Positions 3,485 to 15,500 of a stretch of DNA of 15,554 bases are shown here, in pieces. Made by a program: the position numbers and the translations under genes. Source of the DNA: a bacterium. GTDB lineage: Bacteria > SM23-31 > JAUVVT01. Below the pieces are notes generated by a model. It was given only the letters and a program-made list of their open reading frames with translations, was not told where the DNA came from and did not search any database. Numbering within the stretch: position 1 is the first letter of the stretch; every line of letters begins with the position of its first letter. The stretch spans positions 1-15,554 of the forward strand of contig JAUWXV010000065.1 of the NCBI GenBank assembly GCA_030616165.1, read 5' to 3'.

Positions 3485-4522
3485 TTACCAATATTTTTCC
3501 TGCATTTTTTGTGCCTTTATTATATGCTCTTCGTGAGTGGCGATTTCGAACTCTTTTAAAGCATCAGCAATTTTAACATCGGGAGAAATGCTTTCGATTA
3601 TTGCCCATCCTTCATCATGAAACATTTTAATGCGAATCTCCTTGGCATATTTTGCTCTCAATGCGTCAAAGTATTTTATATAAGGCCAGCAATGAATAAA
3701 AGCTTTTTCCAGATTAACAGGAGCACATACCCAATCTCCGTATCTCCCGGTTATAGCCAATTCTTCACCGGTAATATCAATAATTCTTGTTGGGTCCTGC
3801 CTTGTGCTCGTAGTAATACAGTATTTATTAATCCACGCAAGGGTATTAAGCATTTTTCCGCCCGCAAATGCGGAAGGCCAGAATACAATCTCTGCACCTG
3901 ATTTTCTGAGATACCGCCATCCCTTATGCCAGTTCACATCAAAGCATATCTGTATTCCAATTGTACCGAAATCAGTTTTAAACACCGGAGGCTCAGGAGG
4001 ACCGGGAGATACGCCACTCTCCATCTCTGAAACAGTAGGACGAATCTTACGATACTCACCAACCACTGTCCCATCACGATTAATAACAACTGCTGAATTG
4101 TAGAAACGACCATTTTCTTTTGTGTAAATAGGACAAATGATATAACAGTGATATTTTTTTGCATATTCTGCAAACCTTTTGGTAATTGGACCTGGAGCAA
4201 CTTCTGCACATTCTGACAATGGAGGATTTTTTGCAACCTTAATAAACGGAAATATCTCAGGAAGACAAACAATATCAGGCTGATAAGGAACAAATTCCTC
4301 CATTGTTTTTAATACCTTTTTTATCATTTCTTCAAAAGTTTTTGCTTCAAGACTTTCAAGGGACAAACTTGCAATCCAAACCTCTCTGGGCAGTCTTTCA
4401 CTTATTTTAATGCTCTTTTCTGATGCCCAACTAAAAGTTGATGCCCCCAAAATACTTACTCCCAGACCCGCTGAAGTTTTCTGAATAAATCCTCGACGTG
4501 TTATCTTTTTTTTCTCTTTCAT
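3485..4522 (-). CDS. Tat-exported nitrilase-superfamily carbon-nitrogen hydrolase (paralogue 1)
   Basis: A 345-residue amidohydrolase of the nitrilase superfamily (CN_hydrolase). The catalytic triad is visible: Glu89 in CLPEIFP, Lys159 in GEYRKIRP and Cys193 in GIQICFDVNW. The N-terminus MKEKKKITRRGFIQK followed by a small hydrophobic stretch is a twin-arginine signal, so the folded enzyme is predicted to act outside the cytoplasm. That is unusual for this mostly cytoplasmic family. The family hydrolyses amides, N-carbamoyl compounds or nitriles; the substrate cannot be read from the sequence. The ATG has a GAGGT Shine-Dalgarno sequence (4527-4531). It lies 34 bases after the MBL gene and 86 bases before PhoD, so co-transcription is likely. 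A paralogue with the same N-terminal plan lies at 8622-9680; more than half of the residues in the core agree by eye. Confidence 0.92.
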   Translation of the reverse strand: MKEKKKITRRGFIQKTSAGLGVSILGASTFSWASEKSIKISERLPREVWIASLSLESLEAKTFEEMIKKVLKTMEEFVPYQPDIVCLPEIFPFIKVAKNPPLSECAEVAPGPITKRFAEYAKKYHCYIICPIYTKENGRFYNSAVVINRDGTVVGEYRKIRPTVSEMESGVSPGPPEPPVFKTDFGTIGIQICFDVNWHKGWRYLRKSGAEIVFWPSAFAGGKMLNTLAWINKYCITTSTRQDPTRIIDITGEELAITGRYGDWVCAPVNLEKAFIHCWPYIKYFDALRAKYAKEIRIKMFHDEGWAIIESISPDVKIADALKEFEIATHEEHIIKAQKMQEKYW

Positions 4523-4556: not shown

Positions 4557-6431
4557 TTATTTTACATCAATTACCATCTCTGCGAATTCTCCAAGATGTT
4601 TGCCATTCATAGTTACATCCGCACAGATGATTTCTCGTTTTATGCTCTCATTTTTATGATTAACTTTTATGGTAAACGGTATCATATCGGAAGATTTTGT
4701 CAAAACTTTATAAATCTTTGACTGTTGATTACAAGTAACATTATCCGAATATCTCAAAGTAATCTTAAATTCTGAAGGGGTATCCAGATGATTCATAATA
4801 TTAACGTTAACTGTAAATTCTTCATCGGGTTTAACTTCAATCCTGTATGGATAAAAATGAACCCACAAAGGGTCCATACCCATATTAGCATCCGGCTGGT
4901 CTATAATCTCTTTAAATAAAGCGGTTAATTTTTCTGCCCAGTCCTGGTACATTTCAAGTTCTTCTCGAGTGACTGAAAATGGAAAATAATGTGATGGAAC
5001 AATCACATCTACCTTGAGGTCCAGCAGGTCTTTTGATATCTTTAAATAACCATCATCCTCTCCAATAAAATATCGGTTTCTCGGAATAACCGGGCTGTTC
5101 ATAGGCCGCACGCCGTCAGCCGGATGCCAGATATTATCGCCGCTGAGCAAATATCGTTTCCCCTCATCCTCAATCATTAAACCCTGATGGTAAAAAGTCT
5201 GTCCGGGCATATGAAAAAAATACAACTTAAGACCTTCCCATTCGATTGTCTCACCATCTTTTATCACTCTGTCTGCCTTAATCGGAAATGGTATCAAGCA
5301 GGGGAGTGTGTACCTTTCAGGATTCTCGAAAACATCCAGCATCTTCTCAAATATCCATATTTCTGTCTCAATCGTAATTTCATTGCTGTTCATTCGAAAC
5401 AAAAGTTCTGGCGTTCGAATGTTATGGTCATCATGATAATGGCTGTATGTTACAGCATCGATATGTTCAATGTTATATTTCCTTATAAACTCGCGCATTC
5501 TCGGAACATCAATATATCCATAACCATAAATGATTGCCCTTCTATTATCTGAAACCAATGCGTATGAAGTAGAGCCGAGATAAACAATATGTTTTGAGAC
5601 ACTGAACATCTCCTCGCTGGTTCTCCTTTTGCGATTTGGGTTTACCAGTTTAGTCAATTCTTCATATCTTTCCTCCAGTTTTTCAATTGCGGATATGGGA
5701 TTGTTCATTGTTTCGCCGTGAGAAGGGAGAAGAATATCGGGTTTCTCATTCTTAATATTTTTAAATGACTCGAGCGATGCTCTGATTCCAGGCGGAGGTG
5801 GATTGTAATTCCAGTGAAGGTCGTAATAATTTGTAACCTTTCCCGGAGCAGAAATCAAATCATTGCTGAAAATTGCCGTTTTCCCATCGACATTAACAAT
5901 ATATGATACAGCACCATCGGTATGACCCGGAGTCAGCAAGACCTTAATCGCATAATTCCCAATATTTATTACATCCCCGTCTTTTACTGTCTGTGATACC
6001 CTGACATTTTTTCTAATGGTATTGAAATGTGAGCGAAGGTTATAATTAATGTAAATATGCACATTTTCCCAGAAATCTTCAGCATCGGTGATAAACTGTT
6101 TTTCTCCATCGGGAATATATAAATCGAAATCTCTATTTTTTATATCTACAAGTCCCTGAATCTGGTCACGATGGTGATGAGTGATAAATACACTGCTAAT
6201 GCGCTCCACACCTGCTTTAGATAGATTATTTAGAATCTTACCCGAACCGAAATCTATTAATATTCCATCATTATTATCTTTTATCAGATAGACATTACAG
6301 CAGTCTTTATATAAATAGAGATTATCGGAAATTTTTACAAATTCATTGTTCCTTTCAGAATAATTTTCACAGTTAAAATAAATGAAAAGAACAAAAAAGA
6401 TTGCGACTACGGACATAAAAATTTTCCTCAT
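4557..6431 (-). CDS. Tandem metallo-beta-lactamase-fold lipoprotein with C-terminal beta-sandwich
   Basis: A 624-residue chain with two MBL-fold domains. Domain 1 (about 30-260) has THHHRDQ at 84-90, PGHTDG at 168-173, SND at 189-191 and SHGE at 237-240. The His that normally ends the HxHxDH motif is Gln90. Domain 2 (about 275-510) has SHYHDDH at 330-336, SGDN at 430-433 and PSHYFPF at 479-485. Here the usual PGHT is PGQT (409-412), so the His ligand between the two metal motifs is Gln411, although His407 or His415 might replace it. Residues about 525-624 look like an Ig-type beta-sandwich. The N-terminus is hydrophobic and ends in IYFNC (Cys21), probably a lipoprotein signal with an imperfect lipobox. 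Start: ATG at 6431 with AGGTGA upstream. MBL hydrolases of this kind cleave lactones, thioesters or phosphoesters; the exact substrate is unknown. It sits between the R-M cassette and nitrilase 1. Confidence 0.85.
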   Translation of the reverse strand: MRKIFMSVVAIFFVLFIYFNCENYSERNNEFVKISDNLYLYKDCCNVYLIKDNNDGILIDFGSGKILNNLSKAGVERISSVFITHHHRDQIQGLVDIKNRDFDLYIPDGEKQFITDAEDFWENVHIYINYNLRSHFNTIRKNVRVSQTVKDGDVINIGNYAIKVLLTPGHTDGAVSYIVNVDGKTAIFSNDLISAPGKVTNYYDLHWNYNPPPPGIRASLESFKNIKNEKPDILLPSHGETMNNPISAIEKLEERYEELTKLVNPNRKRRTSEEMFSVSKHIVYLGSTSYALVSDNRRAIIYGYGYIDVPRMREFIRKYNIEHIDAVTYSHYHDDHNIRTPELLFRMNSNEITIETEIWIFEKMLDVFENPERYTLPCLIPFPIKADRVIKDGETIEWEGLKLYFFHMPGQTFYHQGLMIEDEGKRYLLSGDNIWHPADGVRPMNSPVIPRNRYFIGEDDGYLKISKDLLDLKVDVIVPSHYFPFSVTREELEMYQDWAEKLTALFKEIIDQPDANMGMDPLWVHFYPYRIEVKPDEEFTVNVNIMNHLDTPSEFKITLRYSDNVTCNQQSKIYKVLTKSSDMIPFTIKVNHKNESIKREIICADVTMNGKHLGEFAEMVIDVK

Positions 6432-6480: not shown

Positions 6481-7065
6481 TTAAAATATCTCTCCATAAT
6501 CAACCTCAATTCCTTTATCAATCTTTCTATAATAAACAATCTTAATACCTATATGTTCTGGTAAAGCTGCTTTTGCCTCGTATGTACGGGGCTTTATAGA
6601 TACTGGAACATCGCCTATATATCCATCAATTCCTTTTGACTCTTCATCCGGCTCAGATAAACGATAACTGGTTCCTATAATCTCTGCACCTTTCTTAAGT
6701 ATTGCCTCCTGAAATCTGAGTCCGACAAAAGTTTTCACAATCACCAAATCTCTTACCCATTGTTCTACAATTTTTTGGTCAATTTTATCCATTGAATTCT
6801 TTAAATTTTTTAACATTTGCAGGATTTTCTCAGTAGCATTCTTGATTGCATCAGGTTTTTTCTCTAAATACCAATTTTCCCATTCATTCAATGACTTCCC
6901 AGTAAATTGCTGGATAAGCTCACTCATTTGACCAACAATTCTTGGTCTTGTTCCTTGTGCATATTGATTTGCCAAGTTGATAAGGGGAGCGGCGTACTTG
7001 GGAAACTCAGGTGATTCTATGTCCAAATATCTTTGAATTTCACTTATACTAAATTTTACTTTCAT
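6481..7065 (-). CDS. MjaI-family type II restriction endonuclease, predicted CTAG specificity
   Basis: A 194-residue protein that I recognise as the MjaI restriction endonuclease family, whose founder cuts CTAG. Family-like blocks include RFQEAILKKG (117-126) and GIDGYIGDVPVSIKP (145-159). Glu120, Asp147 and the Ser-Ile-Lys at 156-158 are candidates for a variant PD-(D/E)xK catalytic centre. I start it at the ATG at 7065, which begins MKVKFSISEIQRYL, 4 bases after the stop of the methyltransferase. The same frame is open to an ATG at 7170, but that adds 35 residues that overlap the methyltransferase and do not look conserved. No good Shine-Dalgarno precedes 7065, so translation is probably coupled to the upstream methyltransferase. 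That would delay nuclease synthesis until the protective enzyme has been made. CTAG specificity is inferred from the family and from the rarity of that tetramer in the window. Confidence 0.85.
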   Translation of the reverse strand: MKVKFSISEIQRYLDIESPEFPKYAAPLINLANQYAQGTRPRIVGQMSELIQQFTGKSLNEWENWYLEKKPDAIKNATEKILQMLKNLKNSMDKIDQKIVEQWVRDLVIVKTFVGLRFQEAILKKGAEIIGTSYRLSEPDEESKGIDGYIGDVPVSIKPRTYEAKAALPEHIGIKIVYYRKIDKGIEVDYGEIF

Positions 7066-7069
7066 ATAA

Positions 7070-8374
7070 TTACTTAGTAATAGATTCTTGCAAAGCAAGG
7101 AATTTCGATTTGTATTTGTAATACCTCGATAGGTCTGCTTTTCCAAGCCCAAATTTAATAAGATGAGCATTTAAAAAAGTCTTGTTCCGCAAATAGAGAT
7201 AACAGAGTAAGTTATTTTTTTCATCGTACTTTACAGCGTCAAATTTTATGAATACTTTTTGTCCTTTCGTTTTTTCTTTTAAAAATTTGATTGCCTCTTC
7301 ATTCTTTTCTGGTTTCTCTTTCACGCCCAATAATCTGATTTTTACTCCATTATTTAAAATCAATAACTCAGGAGAGACTATTTCTTTTACTGTATAAAAT
7401 TTCTCCCTTTCTGAATGGGAATTATCTATCCTTGAGCCAAACCTCAATTTTCTTGGGTCAATTTTCTTATCAAACTTTATTGGGTCTTTGAAAATATAAG
7501 GTAGATTTTTAGTCTCTTCTTTAAAGTCTGTTTTTACCTCTTCTTTTTTGATTATCTTGAAAGCTGCATCATTAAAAATATAGCCTTGTTTTACTCCCAA
7601 TTTTTCCTCTATAACTGGCAGAAAATCTTCATTTATTTCATACCCAATAGAATTTCTTTTCAAGTTTCTAGCTGCTAAAGATGTTGTTCCACTTCCCAAG
7701 AAAGGGTCTAGAACTGTATCTCCCAAAAAACTAAACATTTTGATAAGCCGTTTTGGCAATTCCTCAGGAAACATTGCCAAGTGCTTATCCTGTTTTTCAC
7801 CAGGAAAGTTCCAATGTCCAGTAAAGTATTGATTCCATTCTTCATGGATCAATCTTGATTGTTCTTTAATCTCTTTAGAAACTTTTGGTGGATTCCCATA
7901 TTTTTTAAAAATCAGAATGAATTCATAATCTAATTTAAGAATCCCACTTCTTGGATAAGGAAAGGAACCCATTACCGTTGCCCCACCAGTAGTATGGCAA
8001 GTAGTAACTTTTTGCCAGATGATTGCTCCCATATAATCAAAACGCGAACTCTCACAAAACTTAATTATCTCTGTTCTTATTGGTATAACCTTATATCTTC
8101 CATAATAAACTGAACGAGCAAATTGGTCACCTATATTAATACATAAACGACATCCTTTATGTAGAATCCTTTTGCATTCATTCCAGACCAAATTAAGATT
8201 GTTGACATATTCCTCATAAGTATTATTGAACCCTATCTGTTCCCCGTTTCCATAATCTTTTAGCTGCCAGTAAGGCGGAGATGTGATAATAAGATGGATT
8301 GATTCATCCGGAACTTCCTTCATTCTCCTTGAATCACCAATTATTATTTTGTGAAAGGTCTTCATAATAATCAC
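7070..8374 (-). CDS. DNA (cytosine-N4/adenine-N6) methyltransferase fused to a degenerate SNase-like domain
   Basis: A 434-residue modification enzyme of the MjaI-type R-M pair. Residues 1-260 are a beta-class N4/N6 amino-methyltransferase: the catalytic TSPPYW is at 31-36 and the SAM-binding DPFLGSGTT follows at 223-231. The SPPY form favours N4-cytosine methylation. A lysine-rich linker (270-325) leads to residues 327-430, which follow the staphylococcal nuclease (SNase) fold pattern: VKIRLLGVKEKPE, a helix with AIKFLKEKTKGQKV, CYLYL, FLNAHLIKFGLGKAD. In that domain the DGD metal loop reads VSPE (333-336) and the second catalytic arginine (usual GR after the YD) reads NN (387-388). Only the first Arg (347) remains, so it is probably a DNA-binding OB-fold rather than a nuclease. 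Start: GTG at 8374 or ATG at 8365 (GTG-ATT-ATT-ATG); neither has a Shine-Dalgarno. Confidence 0.88.
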   Translation of the reverse strand: MIIMKTFHKIIIGDSRRMKEVPDESIHLIITSPPYWQLKDYGNGEQIGFNNTYEEYVNNLNLVWNECKRILHKGCRLCINIGDQFARSVYYGRYKVIPIRTEIIKFCESSRFDYMGAIIWQKVTTCHTTGGATVMGSFPYPRSGILKLDYEFILIFKKYGNPPKVSKEIKEQSRLIHEEWNQYFTGHWNFPGEKQDKHLAMFPEELPKRLIKMFSFLGDTVLDPFLGSGTTSLAARNLKRNSIGYEINEDFLPVIEEKLGVKQGYIFNDAAFKIIKKEEVKTDFKEETKNLPYIFKDPIKFDKKIDPRKLRFGSRIDNSHSEREKFYTVKEIVSPELLILNNGVKIRLLGVKEKPEKNEEAIKFLKEKTKGQKVFIKFDAVKYDEKNNLLCYLYLRNKTFLNAHLIKFGLGKADLSRYYKYKSKFLALQESITK

Positions 8375-8430
8375 AATTTAATGCTTAAAAAACTATTTTG
8401 CTTACACTTTTTATATGAAAAAATATATAA

Positions 8431-8455
8431 GGATATATCCATATTGGATGGGGAT
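8431..8455. promoter_or_regulatory. Overlapping inverted repeats upstream of the methyltransferase, possible operator
   Basis: GGATATATCC (8431-8440) is a perfect 10-base palindrome. It overlaps ATCCA-TAT-TGGAT (8437-8449), and a further GGAT follows at 8452-8455. These GGAT/ATCC units lie 57-81 bases upstream of the GTG at 8374, in the AT-rich 247-base gap before the R-M genes. Many R-M systems control expression through operators at this position. There is no separate C-protein gene, so any regulator would have to be the methyltransferase itself (its SNase-like domain is a candidate) or a host factor. Confidence 0.35.
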
Positions 8456-8621
8456 AATCTTCTAAATAAAATAATATATTATTAGTGAACTTTGTTTTTT
8501 AATTTTTCAATACAATATATATCATTTTTCATTACTTTTCAAGGGGATTTGCTTTTTTTATACTTAATCTCTTTCTCTTACATATCTATTTTACAACTTA
8601 AATTTATCCCATCTAAATTAA

Positions 8622-9680
8622 TCATTCAGGTCTTTTTCTATTTTGTTTTTCAGTTGCGCGCTTAATATACGAGTCATAGGTAACAAGTTCAAATTCTTCT
8701 ATAACCTGAGCCACGGCAACATCAGGAGACCTGCTTTCAAGGGTAAACCATCCTTCAGGATGATAGATTTTTACATCTACCTTCTCAGCATATTTTTCCT
8801 GTATTGCCTTAACTTTTCCCCCTTGATAATCCCAATGGAAAACTTCTTTATCCAGATTAATGGGTGCACAAACCCACGACTGAAGTCTCCCACTTGTGAA
8901 CAGTTCATCACCGGTAATATCAATAATCCTAGCCGGTGCTCTCCATGTGCAGCTCACAATGTAATAATTATTATTCCAGGCAAGAGAATTTAGCATCCTG
9001 CCCCCTGCAAATGCTGAGGGCCAGAATATTATCTCCGCACCTGAATCTTTCAAAAAGCGCCATTTATCCGGCCAGTTTGCATCAAAACAAATTAATATAC
9101 CGATTTTTCCGAAATCAGTTTTAAACACTGGAGGATTAACTGGACCGGGAGTTACACCACCTCTCATCTCACTCTCTGTTGGATGAATCTTGTGATACTC
9201 GCCCACCACATTACCATCCCGGCTGATAAGAACAGCAGTATTATAAACATAATCACCTTTTTTTGTATGAAGAGGACAAATTACGTAACAACTATTTGTC
9301 TTTGCAAATTCTGCAAATCTTCTAACTATTGGTCCAGGAATAATTTCGGCTCTTTCTGGAATGGGTGGAAGACCGGAAATCATAGCATCCGGGAATATCT
9401 CGGTAAGGCAAATTATATCTGGCTGAAAAGGAACAACTTCTTCCATTCTTTTCAGCATTCTTTCAATTCTTTCTTCCTGCGTATTATTCCTGAGATTATA
9501 AAGAGTGATACTGGCTGCCCATACTTCTCTCGGTAATCTGGAACCTCTACTACTTTTAACATTTTTAAGACTTTCCTCAAATACCGAACTAAAACTCGAT
9601 TTACCTATTATACCCAAACCCAGGCCCACAGTAGTCTTTTGTAAAAAACTTCGGCGGTTTATATATTTTTTCTCCTTCAT
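8622..9680 (-). CDS. Tat-exported nitrilase-superfamily carbon-nitrogen hydrolase (paralogue 2)
   Basis: A 352-residue amidohydrolase of the nitrilase superfamily with an intact triad: Glu94 in CLTEIFP, Lys164 in GEYHKIHP and Cys198 in GILICFDANW. The N-terminus MKEKKYINRRSFLQK is a twin-arginine signal followed by a Gly-rich hydrophobic stretch, so export of the folded protein is predicted. It matches the gene at 3485-4522 along its length, including LPREVW, PPVFKTDFG, FWPSAFAGG and RIIDITG, and shares at least one identical 20-base DNA stretch (9109-9128 with 3966-3985). The copies therefore arose by gene duplication, not by independent acquisition. Differences cluster in the substrate-lining segments (for example STRQDPTR against SCTWRAPAR after the catalytic Cys region), which hints at different amide substrates. 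The ATG has a strong AGGAGAG (9686-9692). It follows the deacylase gene by 63 bases. Confidence 0.92.
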   Translation of the reverse strand: MKEKKYINRRSFLQKTTVGLGLGIIGKSSFSSVFEESLKNVKSSRGSRLPREVWAASITLYNLRNNTQEERIERMLKRMEEVVPFQPDIICLTEIFPDAMISGLPPIPERAEIIPGPIVRRFAEFAKTNSCYVICPLHTKKGDYVYNTAVLISRDGNVVGEYHKIHPTESEMRGGVTPGPVNPPVFKTDFGKIGILICFDANWPDKWRFLKDSGAEIIFWPSAFAGGRMLNSLAWNNNYYIVSCTWRAPARIIDITGDELFTSGRLQSWVCAPINLDKEVFHWDYQGGKVKAIQEKYAEKVDVKIYHPEGWFTLESRSPDVAVAQVIEEFELVTYDSYIKRATEKQNRKRPE

Positions 9681-12533: not shown

Positions 12534-15500
12534 TTACTTCAAAAAAATCAATTTTTTGGATTTTATAAAATCTTCTGTACTTATCATGTAAATATATATA
12601 CCACTTGCAACTTTAATGTTACTGTCATTTGTTCCATCCCATTTGACTGAATGATATCCAGCATGTTTTCTTTCATTTACCAATGTCTTTGTCTTTTCTC
12701 CCAATAAATTATAAATTTGAATAGTAATGAAAGATTCTTTCGGTAGTTGATATTTGATTTTTGTTTCTGAATTAAATGGATTGGGGAAATTTTGGAATAA
12801 TGAATAATTATCGGGATTATTAACCGTAACGCTTATTATTTCAGAATATTCATATGAACCATCAAAATCAATTTGTTTTAAGCGGTAATAAATTTTACGA
12901 GTTTTTTCAATATCATCTGTAAATTGATAATTACACTGTTTCATAGTAGTTCCATTACCCTTAACAAATCCAATTTTTATAAATTCATATCCAACGTAAC
13001 TTTTTTCAATTTCAAAACCTAAGTTATTAGTTTCTGAAGACGTTGTCCATTCGAGAACCACTCCGTTCTTAACATCTGTTCTTAATATAAAAGACAAAAG
13101 TTCCACAGGAATAACATTTGGGTTTGTCGAATCAACGAGCGCCCAGATTGAAAAATTATCAACTATTGCTTTAGCTGTCATATTTACCCTATCAATTATA
13201 GTAGGAACCTTACACCATATCAACTCATCTGTCTTAAAATACGCCAATACCAACATATCAGCATGTTCTGAACTTAACCCTGCAGCAGAAAGGTTTTCAT
13301 CTGTATATTTAATTTCTAATTCAGCAACGAATGATTCCGTAATATCTGTTTCAATATAATAATATGCAGCAACACTACCCTCAGTTTTTGCATAATTTGA
13401 ATCAGCCGCTAAAGTGTCAGGAAGTGATGAACCCATATCAGTAATGGTAATGGTCTTTCCAGCATTACTCCCACCTGAAAGAAATAGTATTGTTACTTTT
13501 GTATCATCTATAAAATCCACCTCTACTATGTCTGTATTTGTTGCTATACGTTTCTCAACTGGTATATTTTGACTCTCCTGTGAAATAGGAGCGTTTATCC
13601 AACCAACAGTATAATAATTAGAAGAAGCATATTCTTCTATAATTGGATGAGAATTATCGCCCAAAAATACATTTTTAACCACTATGGCAGCTTTATCACT
13701 CGTAGTAAAACTGCTTGTTGTTTTCAACTTTATTATTCCTGCCAAACCTTCACCTTCTGGAGTATCAGCATCTGATACATTAGATGTATCTGAAAAAATT
13801 CCAGCAATACTGATTCTTTTAAAATTCCCATCATCAGTTCCAGGTATTGTATTTGAAAATAAATCTATATCTGCAAATATATTCTCCTTATTTAGAATAT
13901 TCATTTCAAAAGTATATGGGTTATATTCATAGACATCTACAAATTCAAGTTTCACCCAGCTTAATTCTTTAGGGTCTATAAGCAAATCAAACATATATAA
14001 TACGATATTATAAACATTCTGTAAATAAACTTTAACATATATATCAGTATCAGGACCAATCCCAGTCAGAACATTATTTCCAGAATTTGATGTATTAGTA
14101 GGGAATTCAGTGTAAAGGTCAAGTGTTGCTTTAGCATTCGCATTGGGATATGTCATTTCAAGATTTAATATTCCATACCCATAAATATTATCTTTTCCTA
14201 TTTCTCCCAAATCAACAGTTTGTGATTCAAGTAAATCTTTTAAATCTGTATTTGTTCTTGATGGGTCTTTTTCTAATAAAAGCGCTGCTGCTCCGGCAAC
14301 ATGAGGTGCTGATGCAGATGTTCCATAAAAAGGGTTTTCAGTGTAATTTGAAACTCCCGCTGGAGCAACTACATCGGGCTTTATTCTACCATCATTTGTT
14401 GGACCCATTGAACTGTAATCTTCAATAACATCATATATATAAGTTGTTGCTCCTACTGATAAAACTTCCTCTGCTGTTGCAGGATCGAGTATACTACTCT
14501 TATAACTAACTTCCTCATTTATAAATTCCAAATCATTTTCTGAACTGAAAATTTCGATTTTTGAATTTCCATCAGCACTTTTATTCCAAACAGCGAGATA
14601 ATAAGTTCCATCCCTTTCTGCATTGTAATCTATCATTTCAACAGGAGGTTCATTACCTGTTTGAGATGTCTCACTTGAATCAACTATTACAAGATAATCA
14701 CCATCTTCAAACCATAGATAAAAATCATAATCATTTGAGGAGTAAGGCCAATCATCCCAACTGAGATGTGCTTCGATATTTTCACCAATATTTACATTTT
14801 TTACTTTCAATACTTCAACATTATCATAAAATCTATGCCATCCATATATTTCAGTATTATTAAAATAACTCTCATAATGTTTATTTCTATGATTCCCAGC
14901 ACTATTAACCCATAATATGCCATTATTAATTGCATTTATTGCTATATCACATATAGGCCCTGTTCCATCATAAGGTTGGTAAAAATAAGACATTGAATGG
15001 TTAATTATTTTAACACCTTGGCTAATAGCATAATCCACTGCATAACTTAGCTCAACTCCGGTGTTGAAATTGATTAGATATAATTGTGCATTTGGAGCAA
15101 CATCATGTACAATTTCTGCAACAGCCGTTCCATGTTCATCACCTTCACCAGTGATATCTCCAGTCCCTGAAGTACTATTATAAAAAGATTTTGTAATAAC
15201 ATAATTAGGCAATTCAATACCCAATAAATCCTCATATCCTGTAAAACCACCATCAATAATTGCAACTTTAATTCCGTTCCCAGTGTAACCAGCAATATGA
15301 AATTCATCAGCGTTAATCTTTGCCACACCTTCACTAATTACATCAGGTATTGGTATTTTAGGAACACATATATATAAAACATAAGGCTCTTCGGACAACT
15401 TTTTTATATTTTTAATAGGTAACAACATCTGGACAATATTTTGAAAAACTCCGTAATAATCGTCTTTCTCAATTTCATATAAATCAAAATTAATCTTTGT

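What the first reader, a model, noticed from the sequence alone, without database searches (positions are those of the whole stretch)
7070..8374. R-M methyltransferase fused to a catalytically degenerate SNase domain
The last ~105 residues follow the staphylococcal-nuclease fold, but the metal-binding DGD loop reads VSPE and the second catalytic Arg reads Asn. Only the first active-site Arg remains. A nuclease fold with its catalytic centre removed, attached to the modification enzyme of a self-contained R-M pair, suggests reuse as a DNA-binding or target-recognition module, or as an autorepressor acting on the operator-like repeats at 8431-8455. SNase domains with substitutions in catalytic residues that serve binding roles are established (Tudor-SN). 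Its use in a beta-class MTase is what seems new to me; I cannot exclude that REBASE holds relatives.
Basis: partly seen in the sequence, partly recalled or inferred. Interest (0 to 1): 0.68.

Follow-up and report, generated by a model that had tools for sequence, protein, structure and literature searches.

The report
Dead nuclease tail on restriction-modification methylase
A bacterial DNA methylase that works beside a restriction enzyme carries at its end a staphylococcal-nuclease fold whose cutting site is gone; the same dead tail is kept in many bacteria and archaea, so it is a real working part, probably for holding DNA, though what it does is untested.

Summary
The ORF at 7070-8374(-) is a beta-class (N4-cytosine type) DNA methyltransferase with a conserved linker and a C-terminal SNase domain. 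The next gene (6481-7065) is an MjaI-family restriction enzyme. The tail alone is predicted at pLDDT 92-97 and superposes on staphylococcal nuclease (Z 16.9, rmsd 1.8 over 111 residues). The Asp21, Asp40 and Arg87 equivalents are gone, and no tail of 82 keeps the full catalytic set. Intact thermonucleases stand separately in several related genomes. The architecture is not unique: at least 581 loci encode relatives, and the best 80, all with the tail, span many phyla and both domains. An unnamed PADLOC 'MTase_II' model already covers the full length. The SNase domain is under purifying selection (dN/dS 0.05-0.17). It is kept beside two very different restriction-enzyme types and in orphan methylases, and is cleanly absent from two methylases that keep an apparently intact partner. 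Target-recognition domain, partner-specific docking and autorepressor are therefore not supported: upstream DNA is not conserved and the palindrome is at chance level. Best reading: a dead-nuclease DNA-binding arm that helps the methylase. Binding is untested. I found no description in the papers searched.

The parts
7589..8365 (-). beta-class N4C-type DNA methyltransferase domain (residues 4-262); likely true start is the ATG at 8365
   Evidence: PF01555 E 1e-43; closest solved structure 2zie E 6e-53; relatives start at the MKT... methionine
8270..8284 (-). motif IV TSPPY (residues 31-35), upstream of motif I, as in the beta class
   Evidence: sequence; invariant in 78 homologues
7682..7708 (-). 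motif I DPFLGSGTT (residues 223-231)
   Evidence: sequence; nearly all positions invariant in 78 homologues
7400..7504 (-). conserved linker LPYIFKDPIKFDKKIDPRKLRFGSRID... (residues 291-325), kept even in relatives that have lost the SNase domain
   Evidence: low model confidence at 302-323
7073..7399 (-). catalytically degenerate SNase/OB-fold domain (residues 326-434)
7367..7378 (-). VSPE (333-336) at the place of the metal-binding DGDT loop (Asp21 lost)
7334..7336 (-). Arg347, equivalent of catalytic Arg35; Arg in 66 and Lys in 16 of 82
7310..7321 (-). KEKP (352-355) at the place of the DTPE metal-binding/base motif (Asp40 to Lys, Glu43 not kept in register)
7211..7213 (-). Asn388 at the place of catalytic Arg87 (Asn in 59 of 82)
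7163..7186 (-). NKTFLNAH (397-404), most conserved stretch of the tail; N397, F400 and N402 invariant in 82
6481..7065 (-). MjaI-family restriction endonuclease (type A), 53% identical to R.MthZI
   Evidence: PF09568 E 5.5e-69
8375..8621 (+). AT-rich intergenic region upstream of the MTase; palindrome 8427-8444 not above chance; no evidence of an operator

Best explanation
This is the modification enzyme of a type II R-M pair of the MjaI kind. To its beta-class N4-cytosine methyltransferase domain, a thermonuclease-derived SNase domain was joined in an ancestor, lost its metal site and second arginine, and has since been kept by selection. I think the tail works as a non-cutting nucleic-acid-binding arm on a conserved tether: a basic OB fold that keeps the Arg/Lys that grips phosphate, has its acidic metal ligands replaced by Lys or Pro, and so holds DNA next to the catalytic domain, raising the affinity or processivity of methylation. 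Shown: fold, loss of the catalytic residues, wide conservation, purifying selection, retention beside very different RE types and in orphan MTases, occasional clean absence. Inferred: nucleic-acid binding, the effect on methylation, a single acquisition before the loss of catalysis.
For: SNase fold with pLDDT 92-97, Z 16.9, rmsd 1.8 over 111 aa. Catalytic set absent in all 82 main-group tails, and visibly missing in the archaeal group and the deep planctomycete orphans. Related genomes hold separate intact thermonucleases. SNase-domain dN/dS 0.05-0.17 against 0.05-0.09 for the MTase. Net charge of the SNase part +7.1 on average, +11 in the window. Asp40 replaced by Lys or Arg in 73 of 82; position of Arg35 always Arg or Lys. 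At least 581 relatives, the best 80 all with the tail, in Bacteria and Archaea. Retained with RE type A and type B, which are 25% identical to each other, and in orphan MTases with no MjaI-type RE nearby (L167-L171, L174, L175). The tail's position relative to the MTase is poorly fixed in the full model (linker pLDDT under 50 at 302-305 and 310-323).
Against: No direct test of DNA or RNA binding. The OB/SNase fold also serves protein-protein contacts. The tail is cleanly absent from two MTases that still have an apparently intact RE (L158/G529 and L160/G482) and from several viral MTases, so it is not essential for protection. Basic charge is common in active SNases too and is weak evidence.
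Confidence: 0.5

Rival explanations
1. The tail is a protein-protein module, either MTase dimerisation or docking of the cognate restriction enzyme, so that the two enzymes are coordinated.
For: MTase and RE genes are adjacent or overlapping in most loci (53 of 60 within 60 bp). In the loci found through the RE, nearly all MTases of this clade carry the tail. Viral solo MTases often lack it or carry it truncated.
Against: The same MTase-tail pairs with RE types that are only 25% identical, interspersed on the MTase tree. The tail is kept in orphan MTases and at loci where no RE, or only RE fragments, could be found. Two RE-paired MTases lack it. Self-dimerisation is not excluded.
Confidence: 0.22
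2. The tail is a DNA-binding autorepressor that controls the R-M operon through repeats upstream (8431-8455).
For: A palindrome lies at 8427-8444; some type II MTases autoregulate through added DNA-binding domains (from memory: M.SsoII, M.EcoRII).
Against: Upstream 170 bp of 24 homologues share no common operator; several genes start close behind another gene. An equal palindrome occurs in 433 of 2000 Markov resamples. A short shared element (GGTGGCTTT at -37 to -40) exists in only 4 loci and not in the window.
Confidence: 0.05
3. The tail is part of target recognition: it adds or changes the recognised sequence.
For: An OB-fold could contact DNA next to the site.
Against: Beta-class MTases carry the TRD between motif VIII and motif X (general knowledge), and that stretch is present here. 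Relatives with 58-65% identical MTase cores lack the tail, as do two RE-paired ones. Specificity itself was not measured.
Confidence: 0.08
4. The tail is still a nuclease with a rearranged active site.
For: Arg35 equivalent kept; a Glu lies near the Glu43 place in 49 of 82.
Against: No Asp at the Asp40 window in any of 82, one DxT/S (L010) at the Asp21 window, Arg87 window filled in 12 of 82; the metal site is absent.
Confidence: 0.03

Closest known systems
M.MthZI / M.MjaI (CTAG N4C methyltransferases) with R.MthZI / R.MjaI
   Same: beta-class N4C MTase beside an RE of the same Pfam family; window RE 53% identical to R.MthZI
   Different: the characterised CTAG enzymes are 303-364 aa (PMC5867850); M.MthZI has no SNase-like end by eye and is 35% identical; in pFZ1 the genes are convergent, here tandem
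PADLOC model PDLC03259 (MTase_II, 423 positions)
   Same: covers window residues 6-427, E 1.2e-192: the full-length architecture is already held in a defence-gene collection
   Different: labelled only 'Type II methyltransferase'; no SNase domain named
Staphylococcal nuclease / thermonuclease (PF00565)
   Same: fold and the core AYVYLxxxTFxNAxxI-type stretch
   Different: no metal ligands, Arg87 lost, not a separate protein
Tudor-SN / extended Tudor domains
   Same: catalytically mutated SNase domain kept for binding (PMC7641849)
   Different: eukaryotic proteins, RNA and dimethylarginine binding; no MTase domain; independent origin likely

Membership tests
Beta-class DNA methyltransferase (N4C/N6A) | motif IV (S/D)PPY before motif I F.G.G, N6_N4_Mtase domain | tested here: met
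   TSPPY at residues 31-35, DPFLGSGTT at 223-231; PF01555 E 1e-43; conserved in the family
Beta-class DNA methyltransferase (N4C/N6A) | methylates N4 of cytosine | not testable with these tools
   SPPY form suggests N4C; no methylome
MjaI-family type II R-M system | adjacent RE of PF09568 | tested here: met
   6481-7065, E 5.5e-69; only such hit in the genome
MjaI-family type II R-M system | cuts/methylates CTAG | not testable with these tools
   RE 53% identical to R.MthZI; inference only
MthZI/MjaI-type CTAG methyltransferase clade | MTase groups with M.MthZI | tested here: not met
   separate clade from M.MthZI with SH-aLRT 100 on the MTase-domain tree, quick method
SNase (PF00565) fold superfamily | SNase OB fold and profile match | tested here: met
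Active thermonuclease | Asp21, Arg35, Asp40, Glu43, Arg87 | tested here: not met
   only Arg35 clearly kept; 0 of 82 tails with the full set
PADLOC MTase_II PDLC03259 | full-length profile match | tested here: met
   E 1.2e-192, residues 6-427
Autoregulatory type II MTase (M.SsoII/M.EcoRII-like) | conserved operator upstream of the operon | tested here: not met
   no operator common to the homologues examined; palindrome at chance level

The most novel reading that the evidence does not exclude
The dead SNase pocket is a dedicated nucleic-acid reader (for example of methylated or hemimethylated DNA, single-stranded DNA, or its own mRNA) that gates the methyltransferase: a new class of type II and orphan MTases in which a nuclease was converted into a regulatory sensor, exchangeable between restriction-enzyme partners.
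Probability: 0.15. Interest if true: 0.65.

Novelty: new variant of a known kind. Interest (0 to 1): 0.48.

Why it matters
A dead nuclease fold has been built into DNA methyltransferases found in many bacterial and archaeal phyla and kept by selection, yet it seems to be labelled only 'methyltransferase'. It offers a direct test of what a non-catalytic SNase domain does in prokaryotes, and a natural experiment: the same MTase-tail with two very different RE types, orphan versions, and tail-less versions.

Tried and rejected
(1) Operator: no shared upstream element, palindrome at chance. (2) Tail in trans in the tail-less genomes G482, G529, G421: only the linker, or SNase-like ORFs elsewhere at weak E-values. 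(3) Tail proteins in viral contigs by the tail alone: a single-sequence scan gave nothing, an alignment scan gave one locus. (4) Integron attC-like repeats as the vehicle: 6 upstream hits against 5.2 expected; only L027 and L035 look convincing. (5) Correlation of tail loss with RE loss: suggestive among viral MTases, but the 80 genome loci were picked by full-length score, so tail-less ones are under-sampled; not used as evidence for the best explanation. (6) phmmer of the single tail against PDB chains gave only chance hits; the family profile was needed. (7) Papers: no description of an MTase-SNase fusion found; subscription journals and REBASE are not covered.

Full report
WHAT IS THERE. 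The minus-strand ORF at 7070-8374 encodes 434 residues. Residues 4-262 are a methyltransferase domain with motif IV TSPPY ahead of motif I DPFLGSGTT, the beta order; Pfam gives N6_N4_Mtase at 1e-43, and the nearest solved protein is 2zie, a putative modification methylase (E 6e-53). The GTG at 8374 is probably not the start: relatives begin at the ATG of residue 4. A conserved linker (291-325) follows, then a domain that Pfam calls SNase (E 1.6e-5 in the whole protein, 1.7e-6 alone, above the gathering score). The next gene, 6481-7065, is an MjaI-family restriction enzyme (E 5.5e-69), 53% identical to R.MthZI. It is a self-contained R-M pair, set between ordinary metabolic genes.

THE FOLD. 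The tail alone, with 81 sequences, was predicted at pLDDT 92-97 from residue 326 on. Foldseek puts staphylococcal nuclease at the top (E 1e-7, probability 1.00), and VIA-align gives Z 16.9, rmsd 1.8 over 111 residues. All 81 tails match PF00565 on their own.

THE ACTIVE SITE. Profile alignment to staphylococcal nuclease places Arg35 at Arg347, Asp40 at Lys352 and Arg87 at Asn388; Asp21 falls on Pro335. Across 82 tail-bearing homologues, position 335 is Pro in 76, 352 is Lys in 67, 388 is Asn in 59, and 347 is Arg in 66 and Lys in 16. Glu43 is the one uncertain place: a one-residue shift would put Glu356 there, but a Glu at 355-357 occurs in only 49 of 82. With generous windows no tail of 82 has the full set. 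Four separate ORFs found with the tail profile in related genomes (L115-L118) carry intact DGDT, RLxGxDTPE and YxRLLxY-type motifs, a positive control for the alignment. The second refutation test, intact residues in shifted positions, also fails.

HOW WIDESPREAD. The best 80 all span the tail, in Atribacterota, Planctomycetota, Nitrospirota, Omnitrophota, WOR-3, Ignavibacteria, Methanophagales and others. Independent searches by restriction enzyme and by methyltransferase core found an archaeal second group and deep planctomycete orphans, with shorter or more diverged tails that are also visibly without the catalytic motifs. PADLOC model PDLC03259 covers residues 6-427 at E 1e-192, so the full-length protein family is already catalogued as a type II methyltransferase. 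M.MthZI lacks the tail, and the characterised CTAG enzymes are 303-364 aa (PMC5867850).

IS IT SELECTED? For pairs with synonymous divergence low enough to read, dN/dS of the SNase domain is 0.05-0.17, against 0.05-0.09 for the MTase domain. N397, F400 and N402 are invariant in 82 sequences. This is a working domain, not debris.

WHAT IT IS NOT. (i) Not specific to one RE partner: the same MTase-tail, at 85-90% core identity, sits beside RE type A (about 194 aa, MthZI-like) or type B (about 210 aa), 25% identical to each other, interspersed on the MTase tree. The tail is also present at loci where no RE, or only short RE pieces, was found, and in deep orphans with no MjaI-type RE in the roughly 1 to 1.5 kb held on either side. 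(ii) Not essential for an R-M pair: L160 (G482) and L158 (G529) end soon after the linker and still have an RE ORF of normal length; the tail is not found in trans. The linker persists in every such case (also L009, L111, L163). (iii) Not an evident autorepressor: upstream regions share no operator and the window's palindrome is at chance level. (iv) Not obviously target recognition: tail-less relatives with 58-65% identical cores exist.

MOST LIKELY MECHANISM. With the acidic metal ligands replaced by Pro and Lys, a basic residue always at the Arg35 place, and a net charge of +7 on average, the domain looks like a nuclease pocket turned into a non-cutting nucleic-acid grip, on a conserved tether whose position relative to the core is not fixed in the model (pLDDT under 50 at 302-305 and 310-323). 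I infer that it helps the methyltransferase hold DNA. Binding, and any effect on methylation, are not shown. Dimerisation or another protein contact is the main rival.

NOVELTY. The fold, the MTase class and the RE family are all known; a degenerate SNase arm as a standing part of a large MTase clade is, in the papers that could be searched, undescribed. I call it a new variant of a known kind. Limits: REBASE and subscription journals were not searchable; the 80 genome loci were chosen by full-length score and so over-represent the tail.

Noticed in passing
loci L023-L102, downstream of the MTase: Near-identical MTases (85-90% core identity) are paired with two RE types that are only 25% identical (16 type A, 42 type B among intact-length REs); the types are interspersed on the MTase tree, as if the RE were exchanged.
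   Followed up: partly
L052, L055, L057, L058, L066, L068, L075, L076, L078, L084: In planctomycete genomes the R-M pair sits in the same place, after an ornithine-carbamoyltransferase-like gene (with argD- and argB-like genes further up) and before an rdgB/XTP-pyrophosphatase-like gene: a conserved chromosomal site for an R-M system (gene names by eye).
   Followed up: no
window 7400-7504; L009, L111, L158, L160, L163: The linker LPYxFKDPxxFDKKxDPxKLxFGSKID is strongly conserved although predicted with low confidence, and remains where the SNase domain is gone; L158 and L160 share a short replacement end (DNSDIYxxxELxxAVR).
   Followed up: partly
L134 204-1181 and 1178-1492: MTase and SNase tail are split into two overlapping ORFs (325 and 104 aa) with the tail sequence otherwise intact; frameshift or natural fission.
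   Followed up: no
L007 2989-4389: Viral MTase-tail ORF runs on in frame into a sequence like the start of the RE (SFSKYTTQLI), then stops: a possible remnant of an MTase-RE fusion.
   Followed up: no
upstream of the MTase in L026, L027, L031, L035: Shared GGTGGCTTT at -37 to -40 in loci from different phyla; L027 and L035 also carry attC-like inverted repeats, which suggests integron cassettes, but over all loci such repeats are not above chance.
   Followed up: partly
L003 826-1161; L054, L061, L077: A small ORF or a gap of 285-384 bp between MTase and RE; in L003 a 111-aa ORF of unknown role.
   Followed up: no
window 3488-4522 and 8625-9680: Two paralogous carbon-nitrogen hydrolases with signal-like N-termini lie on either side of the R-M pair.
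   Followed up: no
window 4560-6431: 624-aa protein with two stretches matching metallo-beta-lactamase models, directly downstream of the RE.
   Followed up: no
window 12537-15428: 964-aa subtilase with a type IX secretion-like sorting tail.
   Followed up: no
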